Assembly: GCF_001752365.1 (NCBI RefSeq)
Contig: NZ_MEIY01000001.1
Coordinates: forward strand, 2,162,473 to 2,226,472
From: Marinobacter sp. X15-166B
GTDB taxonomy: Bacteria; Pseudomonadota; Gammaproteobacteria; Pseudomonadales; Oleiphilaceae
Reading direction: 5' to 3'
Length of the DNA: 64,000 nt
The notes beneath the pieces were generated by a model. It saw only the letters and a program-made list of their open reading frames with translations. It was not told the origin of the DNA and ran no database searches. This document shows positions 9,611 through 42,256 of the stretch, piece after piece (position 1 is the stretch's first letter; every line of letters begins with the position of its first letter). The position numbers and the translations under genes are program-made.

Positions 9611-9879
9611 GCGCCACTATGTCAATGTGACCCCCTCGTCGCAAAAAAATCCCTTAAAATCAGTGGGTTGGTTTAAGAAAGGGTGCATCTAGCGCGGGCG
9701 ACGCAGCCTAGCGCAATCAACAAGTTACGCACTGTATATTACAGCAGTATCCGAAACGTTAGTTCGGGCTAGGTCACATTCTATGACTTGAAGAATTTGG
9801 TGGGATTGCTCACATTTTCACAATTCTTAACAGATGTTTCTTTGCGTATTGGCTATGGTTGACCGCCAAAGGAGGGGGC
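9611..9879. other. Intergenic stretch, no gene seen
   Basis: About 270 bases, lower in GC than the surroundings, between the RHH-like and DUF4124 genes. No ORF with a ribosome-binding site, no clear terminator or repeat. It probably holds the promoter of the DUF4124 gene. Confidence 0.4.
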
Positions 9880-10356
9880 ATGCTCAAAAGGATGTTGTTT
9901 TTATTCGCAATAACCGCACCGGCCTATAGTTATAGCGCGGTATATCAGTGCAAGGTTAACGGTCAGACCGTATTTTCGGATCAGCCTTGCGGAAATGACG
10001 CGAAAAAGATTGAGATAAAAGCGCCGACCACTCAGGGCGGGGCGTCGATGGCCGGGGACGGGGTGCAAGACTTCTTACGGCACCGAGAGAAAAAACAGCA
10101 GGTTGAAAGAATAGACCGGGACATCGATCGGTTGGAAAAGCAGAAGACGAGGGCGCAGCGAAACATGGATAACGCTCTGATCGATTACCAACGGCAACGA
10201 GCACGAGCAAACAACAATTTAGCGGGTGCCATTTGGGAGGGCTCACTGGCAAGCGAGGCGGACGTTATGCGTCAGAGGTATCAAACAGAAATCGATGGTG
10301 CCGACCGCGAAATAAACAGGCTTCGAGAAGAACGAAATCGCATCCTAAGTGAATAA
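9880..10356 (+). CDS. DUF4124-type secreted protein
   Basis: 158 aa from the ATG at 9880 (AAAGGAGGGGG upstream). A signal peptide (residues 1-18) precedes 'VYQCKVNGQTVFSDQPCG', the DUF4124 signature with its paired cysteines. The rest, from about residue 60, is a charged coiled coil. Function of the family is unknown. In a prophage edge it may act in lysogenic conversion of the envelope; the GC content is below that of the late genes. Confidence 0.75.
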   Translation: MLKRMLFLFAITAPAYSYSAVYQCKVNGQTVFSDQPCGNDAKKIEIKAPTTQGGASMAGDGVQDFLRHREKKQQVERIDRDIDRLEKQKTRAQRNMDNALIDYQRQRARANNNLAGAIWEGSLASEADVMRQRYQTEIDGADREINRLREERNRILSE

Positions 10357-10382
10357 TAAATAGTTAAAACAGGGAAAAGTAA

Positions 10383-10790
10383 ATGTCGGCGTTTATCACA
10401 GAATCATTGTCCCGTGATGAGAAAATAGAGCAGATATTCGGGCTGCACTGGTTTGCCTGGGTCCCCGTAATTATTTGGGCAGTTCTAGGTTTCTTCACCT
10501 TTGGAATCACGCTGATCTATGCAGTATATAAAGGGCTGGTATTAAAGAACATGGAGCAGGGGGTAACTAATAAACGAGTTATTCTCAAGCGAGGAATTAT
10601 CAGCCGTAAGACGGATGAAATTAAGCTTTCCGCAATTGAAACGGTTCAGATCGACCAAGGAATATTAGGCAGGGTTTTCGGATTCGGGACTGTCCGCGTC
10701 ACCGGTCGGGGGATCAGCGATCTTAATTTCAAAGGCATCGATGATCCCATGAGCGTTAAGCGTGAAATCGAAAACTCGATATCGGCCTGA
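10383..10790 (+). CDS. Bacterial PH-domain membrane protein
   Basis: 135 aa. An N-terminal cytosolic stretch is followed by a hydrophobic hairpin (residues about 20-50, 'WFAWVPVIIWAVLGFFTFGI'). Then comes a bPH2/YdbS-like domain: 'VTNKRVILKRGIISRKTDEIKLSAIETV' and 'GRVFGFGTVRVTGRG' are typical. It sits 26 bases after the DUF4124 gene and converges on the tail genes. Likely accessory cargo acting at the host membrane. Confidence 0.8.
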   Translation: MSAFITESLSRDEKIEQIFGLHWFAWVPVIIWAVLGFFTFGITLIYAVYKGLVLKNMEQGVTNKRVILKRGIISRKTDEIKLSAIETVQIDQGILGRVFGFGTVRVTGRGISDLNFKGIDDPMSVKREIENSISA

Positions 10791-38611: not shown

Positions 38612-39013
38612 TCAGCTGCGCCTCTCAGCTTTGCGCCGCTCCTGTTTGCGCCTTTCTGCCTCCCGTCGTTCTTTCTCGCGCCGTTCTTTGCACTCATCAC
38701 TGTATAAATAACCACTACCAGAAGTCCGGGTACCCTCGTCTGCCGGATTTGGCTTAATGACACCACTGGCGATCAAGTCAGCCAGCCGGTCAGTGGGGAG
38801 GCCATCAGACGGGTTCGGGTAAATGTCGGGGCGTAGTTCGTGAGGGGTGACCTTCCAGTTAGTTGCCTCGCAGATAGCTAGAGCCCGCGTTGGCGGAATA
38901 GGGCGAATCCCCCTTACCATTTGGTAGAGGTATGCGGGAGAGGCGCCGATATGCTTTGCAAAGTCGGATCGCCCACCTGGTGGCAGCTGACTAAGGAACG
39001 TTGTGAGTTTCAT
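38612..39013 (-). CDS. Cro-like repressor (YdaS-type HTH)
   Basis: 133 aa from the ATG at 39013. HTH 'GRSDFAKHIGASPAYLYQMVRG' in the first 40 residues fits Cro/YdaS proteins. A long Arg/Glu/Lys-rich tail (residues about 105-133, repeated ERR/KER units) is unusual and may add nonspecific nucleic-acid contacts. Divergent from cI over a 73-bp operator region; no Shine-Dalgarno is visible. Confidence 0.82.
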   Translation of the reverse strand: MKLTTFLSQLPPGGRSDFAKHIGASPAYLYQMVRGIRPIPPTRALAICEATNWKVTPHELRPDIYPNPSDGLPTDRLADLIASGVIKPNPADEGTRTSGSGYLYSDECKERREKERREAERRKQERRKAERRS

Positions 39014-39020
39014 GGTCAAG

Positions 39021-39080
39021 AATGTAGCTTTTGCTATCGATTACGTCAATAGCCAATGCGATACTAGCAGGCGCTATACT
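39021..39080. promoter_or_regulatory. Divergent cI/cro promoters with three operators
   Basis: Operator-like dyads TAGC-N4-GCTA: TAGCTTTTGCTA (39025-39036), TAGCCAATGCGA (39050-39061, imperfect) and TAGCAGGCGCTA (39065-39076). Minus strand: TTGACG, 17 bases, TACATT, directing cro. Plus strand: TATACT at 39075-39080, 6 bases before the cI ATG. Same dyads recur at 42482 and 42507. Confidence 0.75.
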
Positions 39081-39086
39081 CCTGCT

Positions 39087-39893
39087 ATGGATAGAGCTAA
39101 AGCCCTTAGGGCGTTGATCGATGAAAAATATGGCGGGAATCAAGCTGATTTCGCGCGAGCGATAGGGCGATCTCCTGCTTCCGTTTGGCAGTGGTTAAAT
39201 GGGCACAGGAACATCGGGGAGAAGGTCGCGCGCGAGATTGAGCGCAAGCTCAGGCTCCATGATGGATATCTTGATCATAACCCCGAGAAGTTGGCAAAGG
39301 ACCTTCTCGACCTTGTGAGCAGGGTTAAAGGGTCGTCCGACTACGAGAGACTCGATCCGCGCATAAGGAAAATTGCTGAGCAGATGGAAGGTGCGCCTGT
39401 CGATATCCCGCATGAGCTGCAGTTTGCCGGGCACATGGACGTCTGGGACAGCAAAACCCCGCTTGATGAAGACGAGGTGGAAGTGCCCTTATTTATGGAA
39501 GTCGAGCTGGCAGCGGGGGCGGGCCAGACTCAGGTAGAAGAGCGTATCGGCCCCAAACTGCGGTTTGCCAAGTCCACCCTGTCAAGGGCAGGGGTTCTGC
39601 CGGAATACGCCGCCTGCGCGTTCGTGAAGGGCAATTCCATGGAGCCAGTCATGCCGGACGGCACCTGTGTTGGCGTAAACACCGCTGACAAGGGCATCAA
39701 AGACGGCGAAATCTACGCCATGGACCACGAAGGCATGCTGCGGGTGAAGTACCTGCACCGCAGACCCGGTGGCGGAATCAAGATCGTCAGCCAGAACAGC
39801 AGCGAGCACCCCGTTGAAGAGCTAACCGCCGAGGAAATGGCGCAGCAAGTGAGGGTGATAGGGCGGGTGTTCTGGTGGTCGGTGTTGAGGTAA
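39087..39893 (+). CDS. CI-like prophage repressor (HTH + S24 peptidase)
   Basis: 268 aa from the ATG at 39087. N-terminal HTH ('NQADFARAIGRSPASVWQWLNG'), a linker with possible Ala-Gly cleavage sites ('LQFAGHM', 'ELAAGAGQ'), and a LexA-like peptidase with the catalytic Ser in 'GNSMEP' and Lys in 'LRVKYL'. It should hold lysogeny and self-cleave with RecA after DNA damage. No Shine-Dalgarno and a -10 box just 6 bases upstream suggest a leaderless mRNA, as for lambda cI. Confidence 0.92.
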   Translation: MDRAKALRALIDEKYGGNQADFARAIGRSPASVWQWLNGHRNIGEKVAREIERKLRLHDGYLDHNPEKLAKDLLDLVSRVKGSSDYERLDPRIRKIAEQMEGAPVDIPHELQFAGHMDVWDSKTPLDEDEVEVPLFMEVELAAGAGQTQVEERIGPKLRFAKSTLSRAGVLPEYAACAFVKGNSMEPVMPDGTCVGVNTADKGIKDGEIYAMDHEGMLRVKYLHRRPGGGIKIVSQNSSEHPVEELTAEEMAQQVRVIGRVFWWSVLR

Positions 39894-40024
39894 GTGGTAG
39901 GAACGGCCGTATAGCATCGCTGCGGGCAATTTTGCGCCGAAACTTCAGTACTGCTCTCTCAAATTGGTACGAAACAGGGTGCGGGTCAATAAGACAGTGG
40001 AAATCCAACAAAAAGGAGTAGTAA

Positions 40025-40879
40025 ATGGCCGCGCGGACGGTAAATCTTTCCATTAGTTACGATGGAAAGGCGCATGAACAGCACGAGATAGAGATTTCAG
40101 AGCTGGCTACAAGCCTCAAAGGTCTTGGGGAACTGGTTCAGGTGTCCAACAAGCTCATTAATGGAATTGACTCTCCGATAGAGATTAAAGTTACAGGTTT
40201 CGAGCCCGGCTCATTTGAATACCTCGTAGAAATTGCCCAAGTTGCGGCGCAGTATAAGGATGTGCTTCCATACATAGGGCTTGCTGGAGGGACGGTGGCC
40301 GCAGGATCCTTGCTTGAAATCTTAAAGAAGCTGCGGGGCCGGAAAATTGATCTTGTTGAAGAGCTGGAAGGTTCGGAGACTGTTGTTCTACATGTTGATG
40401 GCGAAGAGGTTGAGTGCTCTAAAGAAGTTGATCAGCTCCTTGCGTCCAAAGCAGTTAGGGCTGCTGTGCAGGATCTAATTTACAACCCGACTCGGAAAGA
40501 AGGGACGGAAACTTTCAAGATCAAGGACAAGAATGGAAAAGTGCTTCTTCAAGAGTCAAAAAATGGAGCCTCCAACTATAAAGCTCCAGGGGCGTTGTAT
40601 GCAGAAAGGAAGAACAGTGAAGATGTTGAGGCCCAAGTTAAGTTCCTGACAGCTCACGCTGATAAATCCAATCAGTGGCGAATCGAATACCTCGGACAGG
40701 CCCATAATGTTAAAATCAAGGATGACCTTTTTTTGGAGTTGATCCATAGTCAAGAGAGCCCGACTCTATTTGGGCAAAAGTATAAGGTGAAGCTAGAAAA
40801 GGTGGTTAAAGAGGCTCGAGGGCGAGACCCAATAACCAGCTATGTAATCCAGAAGGTCTATCATAAGTCCCTCAAATGA
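40025..40879 (+). CDS. Unknown protein, first gene of Rex-position cassette
   Basis: 284 aa, AAAAAGGAG 7 bases before the ATG. The N-terminal module ('VNLSISYDGKAHEQHEIEIS', 'LATSLKGLGELVQVSNKLIN', 'GFEPGSFEYLVEIAQ') resembles a DUF7946-like family, by memory only. A short hydrophobic helix follows (residues 80-100, 'VLPYIGLAGGTVAAGSLLEIL'). The C-terminal half is a strand-rich lysine-rich domain. It follows cI by 131 bases and is notably AT-richer than the phage core. RexA is 279 aa and sits at the same place in lambda; no sequence similarity to RexA was noticed. Confidence 0.6.
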   Translation: MAARTVNLSISYDGKAHEQHEIEISELATSLKGLGELVQVSNKLINGIDSPIEIKVTGFEPGSFEYLVEIAQVAAQYKDVLPYIGLAGGTVAAGSLLEILKKLRGRKIDLVEELEGSETVVLHVDGEEVECSKEVDQLLASKAVRAAVQDLIYNPTRKEGTETFKIKDKNGKVLLQESKNGASNYKAPGALYAERKNSEDVEAQVKFLTAHADKSNQWRIEYLGQAHNVKIKDDLFLELIHSQESPTLFGQKYKVKLEKVVKEARGRDPITSYVIQKVYHKSLK

Positions 40880-40912
40880 GGCGGGTGCGCTGCACCAAGC
40901 GAGATAGTAAGT

Positions 40913-41161
40913 ATGCAGACAAATCTAATCGTGACCTTAGCTTTTTTGGCTATGCTCCCGGCTTTGTTCGTGGTTTCTCGCGCTATAACTCGCCTGATTA
41001 CGGATTCGGTTATGGATGACCGTGTTCAGATAACATTCACAGCATCTGATGGTCGTGTCTATCGTCGACAAATTAGAGTTTCGCGAGACCAAGAACTCGA
41101 TAAGCTTCTGACGGATATAGCATCTCAATCAAAGAAAAATAAAAAGGCTGAGGGGCATTGA
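40913..41161 (+). CDS. Small single-span membrane protein, cassette gene 2
   Basis: 82 aa. An N-terminal helix ('LIVTLAFLAMLPALFVVSRAI') is followed by a soluble basic domain with 'ITFTASDGRVYRRQIRVSRDQELDKLL'. Ribosome site weak (GCGAGA). Its stop overlaps the next gene's TTG start. Low GC. Function unknown; likely acts with its neighbours at the inner membrane. Confidence 0.6.
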   Translation: MQTNLIVTLAFLAMLPALFVVSRAITRLITDSVMDDRVQITFTASDGRVYRRQIRVSRDQELDKLLTDIASQSKKNKKAEGH

Positions 41162-41559
41162 GCAATCAAGTTCAAAGTGTTCAGGTCGGAAATAGGTTTG
41201 TTGAAGGCTCGGGTGGCGGGGCGCTCGGGGTTGTCCTGATCCAGGCGCTCCAGCTGATTGGGGATCACACATATCGGGATCTGGCGATTTCTGCTGTCCC
41301 GATTGTTTCCGCTCTCTCAGGATACCTGATCCACGCTTGCTACCTTTTCTTAGCTAAGGACTGGCCTCTAATAAAAATGAATCGAGCGTATGACAAAATG
41401 GAAAAAAGGCTTAGACGCCAAATAAATAAACAAAATATTTCCGAGGAAGAGCGAAGGTTAATCAATGAGAAGCTGGTTGTTCTTCAGGAGGTTCGTAGCG
41501 ACTCGGAGATCTCAAGAATAACCAAAATTATTGAGGCTGCGCCCGAGTCGAATGCTTAG
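41158..41559 (+). CDS. Two-span membrane protein, cassette gene 3
   Basis: 133 aa from a TTG start (AGGGG upstream) overlapping the previous stop. Residues about 20-65 hold two hydrophobic helices ('ALGVVLIQALQLIG', 'AISAVPIVSALSGYLIHACYLF'); a charged coiled coil makes up the C-terminal half. Size and topology recall lambda RexB (144 aa, membrane), again without visible sequence similarity. Last gene of the low-GC cassette. Confidence 0.6.
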   Translation: MSNQVQSVQVGNRFVEGSGGGALGVVLIQALQLIGDHTYRDLAISAVPIVSALSGYLIHACYLFLAKDWPLIKMNRAYDKMEKRLRRQINKQNISEEERRLINEKLVVLQEVRSDSEISRITKIIEAAPESNA

Positions 41560-41618
41560 CCTTGCTTGCTATTGGCCTTCACAGGCTTTTTATTATTATT
41601 CGCAACAATCCGCCAGCA

Positions 41619-42002
41619 TCACGCCTCCACCATCAAATCATCCATATCCACCTGCAGCGCTTCCGCCAGCGCTCTTAGCACCTTGGCTGAGCCTGACTTG
41701 CTGCCGGCTTCAATCTGACTGATGTAAGACTTGCCAACATTGGCGGAGTTGCCCAGAGCCTCTTGAGTCAGGCCACGGTATTCACGCCAGACTTTAAGTG
41801 GGTGATCGTCTCCCGCTATAAGGCGGGCAGCCACATCACTTGGTATCGCCTCATCCTCACCGCTGACCAGTTCCTGCATGGCTGCGCTGGCATCCGCTGC
41901 GTCCCGCACATCTTCCGCCAGCGCCAATAGGTTCAGGTATTCGTCGTAGGGCAGCACGGCATACTCCGGCTTTCCCTCGCGTTCAATAATTTGTACGTTC
42001 AT
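41619..42002 (-). CDS. Antitoxin, HTH (HigA/XRE-like)
   Basis: 127 aa. N-terminal 'EYAVLPYDEYLNLLALAED' antitoxin-like segment, then an XRE HTH ('WREYRGLTQEALGNSANVGKSYISQIEAGSKSG'; cited in part). Its ATG overlaps the toxin stop (ATGA). It should bind both toxin and their promoter. Orientation is opposite to the flanking early genes. Confidence 0.85.
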   Translation of the reverse strand: MNVQIIEREGKPEYAVLPYDEYLNLLALAEDVRDAADASAAMQELVSGEDEAIPSDVAARLIAGDDHPLKVWREYRGLTQEALGNSANVGKSYISQIEAGSKSGSAKVLRALAEALQVDMDDLMVEA

Positions 42003-42256
42003 TTGTAAACATCTCCTCTTGAACCAACCTTCAGCACCAAAACCACCAGCTCGCCATCATCAATGCTGCAAATGGCCCGGTAGCTACCTTGCCGCAAACG
42101 CCAATACGGTTCGCCCTTCATAGGCTTCCAGTCACCTTGATAGGTGTACGGGCTCCTGGCCATCGCTTCCAGCTCCCTCTGCAGCTTTTGCGCCTGCGCT
42201 TTGGGCATCTTCAGGATCGCCTTCAGGGCTGATTTCTTGTAGGTCAGTTTATGCAT
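41999..42256 (-). CDS. Toxin, RelE/ParE superfamily
   Basis: 85 aa. 'YKKSALKAILKMPKAQAQKLQREL', 'GEPYWRLRQGSYRAICSIDDG' and the terminal 'VLKVGSRGDVYK' are typical of RelE-type mRNA interferases. Upstream of its antitoxin (toxin first, as in higBA). Likely maintains the prophage or acts in defence from within the immunity region. Confidence 0.88.
   Translation of the reverse strand: MHKLTYKKSALKAILKMPKAQAQKLQRELEAMARSPYTYQGDWKPMKGEPYWRLRQGSYRAICSIDDGELVVLVLKVGSRGDVYK

What the first reader, a model, noticed from the sequence alone, without database searches (positions are those of the whole stretch)
40025..41559. Candidate undescribed exclusion/defence cassette at the rexAB position
Directly behind the CI-like repressor, and read in the same direction, are three coupled genes: 284 aa mostly soluble, 82 aa with one membrane helix, 133 aa with two membrane helices and a coiled coil. 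Lambda has rexA (279 aa) and rexB (144 aa, membrane) in just this place, for superinfection exclusion, but I see no sequence similarity. The cassette is clearly AT-richer than the phage core, which suggests separate acquisition. A soluble sensor with two membrane partners, expressed in the lysogen, is a plausible anti-phage module. Function is inference.
Basis: partly seen in the sequence, partly recalled or inferred. Interest (0 to 1): 0.75.

Follow-up and report, generated by a model that had tools for sequence, protein, structure and literature searches.

The report
Three-gene prophage anti-phage defence cassette
Behind the repressor of a dormant virus in this bacterium sits a small three-gene set whose main protein is a distant relative of one that mycobacterial viruses use to protect their host from other viruses; the same three genes travel together on several unrelated viruses and a plasmid, so it is probably a little-studied antiviral defence.

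Summary
In detail: three tightly packed genes (284, 82, 133 aa) follow a CI-type repressor in a prophage, at 44-47% GC against 59.5%. "Undescribed" does not hold for gene 1: it belongs to PADLOC defence candidate PDC-S42, NCBIfam LAPAL_fam and phrog_3243, and is a full-length relative of gp29 of mycobacteriophage MichelleMyBell, half of a prophage abortive-infection pair (PMC6426606 passage). No sequence relation to lambda RexA or Phrann gp29 was found. Genes 2 and 3 of the window match no family significantly, and their profiles do not match MichelleMyBell gp30. The trio recurs in 13 of 13 close-clade loci examined (nine distinct) and in one E. coli prophage. Nine more distant relatives lack the small gene pair. 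Best reading: an abortive-infection module that works like RexAB without being one, a three-component variant of the MichelleMyBell gp29-gp30 kind: a cytosolic protein (predicted ferredoxin-like plus OB-like domains) with two membrane partners. No function was tested here.

The parts
39003..39893 (+). CI-like repressor (HTH + peptidase S24), upstream neighbour
   Evidence: Peptidase_S24 1.6e-21; phrog_4 transcriptional repressor 3.9e-40
40013..40018 (+). AAGGAG, likely ribosome-binding site of gene 1
   Evidence: read directly from the sequence
40025..40879 (+). gene 1, 284 aa, PDC-S42 / LAPAL_fam / phrog_3243 protein, relative of MichelleMyBell gp29
   Evidence: PADLOC 1.6e-41, NCBIfam 179.8 bits with cut-off 60, phrog_3243 2.2e-58, hhalign to gp29 prob 97.7 and 96.9
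40025..40594 (+). gene 1 N-terminal domain (residues 1-190), predicted ferredoxin-like fold split by an insert
   Evidence: AlphaFold2 pLDDT 80.6, pTM 0.80; VIA-align best Z 6.5, a weak, common level
40256..40336 (+). Gly/Ala-rich hydrophobic stretch followed by basic residues (about residues 78-104) inside the N-domain insert
   Evidence: holds the most hydrophobic 19-mer in 18 of 23 homologues, membrane-grade (>= 1.6) in 9 of 23, 1.28 in the window protein
40601..40876 (+). gene 1 C-terminal domain (residues 193-284), predicted OB-like fold
   Evidence: VIA-align: single-strand-binding proteins, Rim1 Z 7.3 over 83 residues, rmsd 2.9
40913..41161 (+). gene 2, 82 aa, one N-terminal membrane helix
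   Evidence: hydropathy; 65% identical in L003 under purifying selection; counterparts in all close-clade loci examined
41158..41559 (+). gene 3, 133 aa (TTG start), two hydrophobic segments and charged tail
   Evidence: hydropathy; 64% identical in L003; counterparts in all close-clade loci examined

Best explanation
The cassette is a prophage-carried abortive-infection module. SHOWN by sequence: gene 1 belongs to the gp29 (PDC-S42) family, and in its close clade it travels with two small membrane genes. INFERRED: all three are made in the lysogen by read-through from cI. Gene 1 is a two-domain cytosolic sensor/effector kept silent at the inner membrane by gene 2 and/or gene 3. Infection by another phage disturbs this complex, perhaps when the OB-like domain meets phage nucleic acid or a phage protein bound to it. 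Gene 1 (through its hydrophobic insert) and/or gene 3 then damages membrane function and stops growth before the intruder matures. Trigger and effector are the least certain steps.
For: Gene 1 is PDC-S42 and a full-length homologue of MichelleMyBell gp29; the MichelleMyBell prophage system is described as typical abortive infection (PMC6426606 passage), with a toxic gp29 and a putative membrane gp30 (PMC11856565 passage). Trio conserved in 13 of 13 close-clade loci and in E. coli UPEC85, in places typical of accessory genes: behind cI (L003), between Rz-type lysis gene and terminase, among baseplate genes, on a Pseudomonas plasmid. Purifying selection on all three. Two wider-family members lie beside defence genes: PglX 3.1e-136 and MkoC 1.2e-270. 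RexAB-type precedents for a cytosolic plus membrane pair (PMC12894663 passages).
Against: No functional data. Genes 2 and 3 show no detectable similarity to MichelleMyBell gp30 (prob 0.7 and 0.3). Window gene 1's hydrophobic stretch is below membrane grade (1.28). OB-like and ferredoxin-like readings have Z of 7.3 and 6.5, reachable by unrelated models, and Foldseek found no PDB match under 0.001. No defence family was found among the scanned neighbours of L035 or L003. NCBIfam names the family a putative phage structural protein.
Confidence: 0.55

Rival explanations
1. Superinfection exclusion at the envelope: genes 2 and 3 block DNA entry of some phages, gene 1 being a cytoplasmic stabiliser.
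For: Two of three proteins are predicted membrane proteins; another prophage of the same mycobacteriophage cluster, Charlie, uses a single membrane protein that likely prevents DNA injection (PMC9262239 passage).
Against: The conserved and wider-spread component is the cytosolic gene 1, which also occurs without the pair; the MichelleMyBell system acts after DNA injection (PMC6426606 passage).
Confidence: 0.15
2. Toxin-antitoxin-like or addiction module: gene 1 toxic, membrane genes neutralise it, benefit is prophage or plasmid maintenance and not defence.
For: MichelleMyBell gp29 is described as toxic (PMC11856565 passage); tight gene packing; presence on plasmids.
Against: Relatives exist without partners, which a strict toxin would not allow; the tested relative defends against phages.
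Confidence: 0.12
3. Lysogeny regulation or lysis modulation: the cassette tunes the repressor switch or the lysis proteins of its own phage.
For: Position behind cI; RexA can bias the lambda switch (PMC11077077 abstract start in a search listing). Sets lie beside lysis genes in Proteus (holin and endolysin), near them in E. coli UPEC85, and gp29-gp30 follows lysin/holin genes in MichelleMyBell.
Against: In the window the recognised lysis genes are on the other strand at about 33.4-34.8 kb; the set also occurs behind cI in L003, among baseplate genes and on a plasmid.
Confidence: 0.1
4. Phage structural protein, as NCBIfam names the family.
For: NF053583 'LAPAL motif-containing putative phage structural protein', 179.8 bits with cut-off 60.
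Against: Portal, terminase and tape-measure genes are on the - strand at 19.9-32.6 kb while gene 1 is in the immunity region on +; relatives lie on plasmids and in bacterial defence neighbourhoods.
Confidence: 0.03

Closest known systems
MichelleMyBell (MMB) gp29-gp30, prophage abortive-infection system of mycobacteriophages (DefenseFinder name MMB_gp29_gp30)
   Same: Gene 1 and gp29 are homologous end to end and share PDC-S42 and phrog_3243; a small membrane-protein gene lies directly behind in both; both are carried by temperate phages.
   Different: Three genes instead of two; neither small protein resembles the 67-aa gp30 by profile comparison; Gammaproteobacterial elements instead of actinophages; activity untested.
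PADLOC PDC-S42 (phage defence candidate) / NCBIfam LAPAL_fam / phrog_3243
   Same: Gene 1 scores as a member.
   Different: The nine more distant proteobacterial relatives inspected have no such pair behind them; here gene 1 has two constant partners.
Lambda RexAB
   Same: Place and layout behind cI: about 280-aa soluble gene, then membrane gene(s).
   Different: No RexA/RexB family match in the window proteins although the lambda proteins match theirs; no profile similarity (prob 0.6 and 1.8); two small membrane genes instead of one.
Phrann gp29-gp30 (RelA-like abortive infection)
   Same: Same gene numbers and genomic place in a related mycobacteriophage; also called abortive infection (PMC6426606 passage).
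   Different: Phrann gp29 has a RelA_SpoT domain (2.2e-12); gene 1 and MichelleMyBell gp29 have no such match and the gene-1 profile does not align with it (prob 0.3).
Other RexAB-type systems: Sbash gp30/31, CarolAnn gp44/43, Butters gp30/31, P. putida RexAB
   Same: Cytosolic plus membrane protein in a prophage (PMC12894663 and PMC6426596 passages).
   Different: Not compared by sequence here; their cytosolic proteins are described as RexA-like or DUF4747, which gene 1 does not match.

Membership tests
PDC-S42 / LAPAL_fam / phrog_3243 protein family (gene 1) | Profile match over the whole protein, above the curated cut-off where there is one | tested here: met
   PDLC05015 1.6e-41 over residues 6-279; NF053583 179.8 bits, cut-off 60; phrog_3243 2.2e-58 over 4-281
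MichelleMyBell gp29-gp30 system | gp29 homologue | tested here: met
   hhalign prob 97.7, 96.9; negative comparisons RexA 0.6 and Phrann gp29 0.3
MichelleMyBell gp29-gp30 system | gp30 homologue | tested here: inconclusive
   profiles of gene 2 and gene 3 against gp30: prob 0.7 and 0.3; short membrane proteins diverge fast. Gene 3 and gp30 both have two hydrophobic segments (gp30 judged by eye)
MichelleMyBell gp29-gp30 system | Two-gene operon | tested here: not met
   three genes in the window and in the close-clade loci examined, so filed as a variant and not as a member
MichelleMyBell gp29-gp30 system | Protects the lysogen from other phages | not testable with these tools
   needs plating experiments
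Lambda RexAB | RexA family match (PF15969) | tested here: not met
   no match for gene 1 up to E 1, lambda RexA 1e-97; hhalign prob 0.6
Lambda RexAB | RexB family match (PF15968), four membrane helices | tested here: not met
   no match for genes 2 and 3, lambda RexB 8.5e-92; gene 3 hhalign prob 1.8; one and two hydrophobic segments. RexB's four helices are from PMC6426596 (passage)
Lambda RexAB | Position directly behind cI, same strand | tested here: met
   window and L003 compared with lambda
Phrann gp29 (p)ppGpp synthetase | RelA_SpoT domain | tested here: not met
   none in gene 1; present in Phrann gp29, 2.2e-12
OB-fold nucleic-acid-binding proteins (C-terminal domain of gene 1) | OB fold | tested here: inconclusive
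   VIA-align Z 7.3 and below, mostly single-strand-binding OB proteins, but no Foldseek PDB match under 0.001 and a model of pLDDT 73.1

The most novel reading that the evidence does not exclude
A three-component, membrane-coupled abortive-infection system of Gammaproteobacteria and their mobile elements, not catalogued as a unit, in which a ferredoxin-like/OB-like cytosolic protein reads phage nucleic acid (or a phage protein bound to it) and is restrained or deployed by a one-helix and a two-helix membrane partner; it arose from a solo defence gene that gained membrane partners on separate occasions, two in proteobacterial elements and one in actinophages.
Probability: 0.25. Interest if true: 0.7.

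Novelty: new variant of a known kind. Interest (0 to 1): 0.5.

Why it matters
It links a catalogued proteobacterial defence candidate (PDC-S42), for which I found no functional paper, to a mycobacteriophage system that has been tested, and shows that in one clade the gene travels with two constant membrane partners. That gives a concrete unit of about 1.5 kb to clone and test in ordinary laboratory hosts, and a way to ask how RexAB-like defence arises from unrelated proteins. DefenseFinder's gp29-gp30, reported in 2023 only from Actinobacteria (PMC10482375 passages), would then have relatives in Proteobacteria, their phages and plasmids.

Tried and rejected
RexAB homology: not met by Pfam and hhalign. 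(p)ppGpp synthetase: not met. Phage structural protein: unlikely from position and strand.

Structure: no solved relative by sequence, the best of two hits being E 0.52 to a ribosomal protein. Foldseek gave no PDB match under 0.001 for the whole protein or the N-domain. The OB-like and ferredoxin-like readings rest on VIA-align Z values of 7.3 and below, and 6.5 and below, which the tool warns are common. RexA was not among the rows shown; that says nothing either way.

Searches that gave little: gene 1 in 124 genomes of the genus, only the window's own; gene 3 in 369 class-level genomes, only the own; LAPAL_fam in the same class sample, 14 of 369, 7 over the cut-off; gene-1 profile in 398 phylum-level genomes, 11. 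Genome-contig scans: 0 relatives among 54 candidate stretches, then 1 locus. Viral-contig scans with the Pseudomonas and Vibrio proteins: 0 relatives. Promoter- and terminator-like sites were no more frequent than in shuffles.

Papers: 'PDC-S42' 0; LAPAL with phage, 72 papers, 20 listed, none about such a protein by title; PADLOC with 'phage defence candidate', 4 listed, none opened; six family names, 4 papers, matching on gp29-gp30 only; a six-term search for a three-gene OB-fold system, 0. The primary paper on the MichelleMyBell and Phrann systems (Dedrick et al. 2017, recalled) is not held, so its findings are taken from passages of later papers; no paper was read whole.

Full report
OBSERVATION. 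The three ORFs are present as described. They follow an HTH-S24 repressor in a prophage with integrase, replication initiation, spanin/endolysin-type, portal, terminase and tape-measure matches. An IMG/VR record of 40,227 bases holds the same gene 1 at 100% identity; by arithmetic it would span about window 8727-48953, though only its stretch L002 was looked at. The cassette has 44-47% GC in a prophage of 59.5%. No promoter- or terminator-like site was listed between cI and gene 1, and such sites overall were no more frequent than in shuffles.

ARE THEY GENES AND A UNIT? In prophage L003/L022 a block from cro to gene 3 is kept at 68% DNA identity (window 38688-41563) and ends four bases after the gene 3 stop. 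Behind it the window has an HTH/ParE-type pair and L003 a GmrSD_C-type nuclease. dN is 0.125, 0.239 and 0.242 for the three genes; dS is 2.83 for gene 2 and not computable for the others.

CONSERVATION OF THE TRIO. I looked behind gene 1 in 13 loci of the close clade, chosen by gene-1 similarity alone. All 13 carry a 79-104 aa ORF with an N-terminal hydrophobic segment and then a 127-171 aa ORF (lengths by first possible start). The second small protein has two hydrophobic peaks in the ten sets measured, though the weaker one falls to 0.92-1.2 in some. Several loci are duplicates or near-duplicates (L037/L027, L039/L038, L044/L026, L043/L042), leaving nine distinct sets besides the window: L003; Vibrio phage 10N.286.45.F8_PE001, whose record notes a PM2-type capsid protein; L023, between a baseplate hub and a baseplate wedge gene; a Pseudomonas megaplasmid; Proteus mirabilis, before a holin and endolysin; L038; L040; L041; L042. 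L047 from a genome search is a further copy of the L023 set. E. coli UPEC85, the only hit in 5,426 genomes, has the set between a lysis protein gene and nohD/terminase; its gene 2 is unannotated but readable. Of 36 plasmid-collection records that match gene 1, 30 of them Pseudomonas, only one Pseudomonas and one Proteus record were opened. By contrast nine relatives outside the clade (L005-L008, L048-L052) have no such pair directly behind them on the same strand. In a tree of 26 gene-1 proteins the trio members fall in two clades (99/97 and 93/92); one origin is not excluded. The three actinophage proteins form another clade (100/100). Where genes 2 and 3 are better represented they fall in PHROGs of unknown function: L023 gene 2 in phrog_15510 (8.9e-36), L023 gene 3 in phrog_15878 (6e-55), Proteus gene 3 in phrog_35868 (3e-8). 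The window's gene 2 touches phrog_36230 and phrog_15510 only at 0.015-0.018, and gene 3 matches none.

WHAT GENE 1 IS. It matches PADLOC PDC-S42 (1.6e-41), NCBIfam LAPAL_fam (179.8 bits, cut-off 60), phrog_3243 (2.2e-58) and, over residues 8-78, Pfam DUF7946 (1.8e-7). The depositors of the Vibrio phage labelled its homologue 'MMB_gp29_gp30__gp29'. I tested that lead. MichelleMyBell gp29 matches PDC-S42 (1.6e-16) and phrog_3243 (7.3e-81) and aligns end to end with two gene-1 profiles (prob 97.7, E 1.8e-12; prob 96.9, E 1.5e-10). The same test gives 0.6 for lambda RexA and 0.3 for Phrann gp29. The small proteins fail it: profiles of genes 2 and 3 against gp30 give 0.7 and 0.3. Foldseek places a 184-aa Pipsqueaks protein among the four BFVD matches under 0.001 (3.3e-6 over 94 columns). 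By its length and place it is gp31, the C-terminal part of that phage's gp29 homologue.

PREDICTED ARCHITECTURE. Whole-protein model: pLDDT 73.1, pTM 0.59. N-domain alone: pLDDT 80.6, pTM 0.80. The last 90 residues resemble OB-fold single-strand-binding proteins (Rim1 Z 7.3; RPA, Teb1 and SSB lower). The N-domain resembles ferredoxin-like folds (best Z 6.5); I read residues about 75-155 as an insert. These Z values are within what unrelated models reach, so the fold names are leads. The insert holds a Gly/Ala-rich hydrophobic stretch. It has the protein's most hydrophobic 19-mer in 18 of 23 homologues and is membrane-grade in 9 of 23, but not in the window protein (1.28). G62, G85, W218 and D233 are invariant in 23 of 23 (the three far rows L053-L055 were left out of these counts).

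FUNCTION. PMC6426606 (passage) calls the Phrann and MichelleMyBell prophage systems typical of abortive infection: adsorption and DNA injection proceed but phage production is thwarted. PMC11856565 (passage) describes a toxic gp29 and a putative membrane gp30. Wider-family members can sit beside defence genes: L028 beside a PglX-like methylase (3.1e-136), and L034 (PDC-S42 model PDLC05016, 4.5e-111) beside MkoC (1.2e-270). The scanned neighbours in L035 and L003 gave no PADLOC match, and the other loci's neighbours were not scanned. From this I infer an abortive-infection module with a cytosolic sensor/effector and two membrane partners. Which protein senses and which kills is open: in lambda, Sbash, CarolAnn and P. 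putida systems the membrane protein is the effector, in Butters the cytosolic one (PMC12894663 passages).

VERDICT. Gene 1 is a member of a known defence-candidate family with a tested relative. The three-gene form was not found described as a unit in the searches made, which cover open-licence full texts only. Novelty: a new variant of a known kind.

Noticed in passing
window 41619-42256, - strand: Convergent HTH antitoxin-like gene (41619-42002) and ParE-like toxin gene (41999-42256) directly behind the cassette; in L003 this place is taken by a GmrSD_C-type nuclease gene, so the spot behind gene 3 looks exchangeable.
   Followed up: partly
window 9859-10790, + strand: A second AT-rich + strand pair near the left prophage end (GC 0.512 and 0.458): DUF4124 protein and bacterial PH-domain (bPH_2) protein; possibly another accessory insertion.
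   Followed up: partly
L020 and L059 (MichelleMyBell and Phrann gp29): Papers call DefenseFinder's gp29-gp30 a (p)ppGpp synthetase (PMC10482375, PMC12363180 passages), but only Phrann gp29 has a RelA_SpoT domain; MichelleMyBell gp29, which the name MMB_gp29_gp30 points to, has no such match. The two unrelated systems seem to have been mixed up.
   Followed up: yes
Mycobacterium phages Pipsqueaks, Melville, Tapioca, Fulbright (L060, L024): The gp29 homologue is broken into pieces or shortened in several close phages; Pipsqueaks and Fulbright keep its C-terminal part and the small gene behind it.
   Followed up: partly
L035:3593-6204, - strand: A distant gp29-like protein (318 aa) is followed by a 292-aa gene and a 209-aa gene with four hydrophobic segments, neither matching Pfam or PADLOC at the limits used: possibly another soluble-plus-membrane arrangement.
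   Followed up: partly
L034:243-4301, - strand: A PDC-S42 protein of a second model (PDLC05016) lies beside a MkoC match; it could be a companion of that defence system.
   Followed up: no
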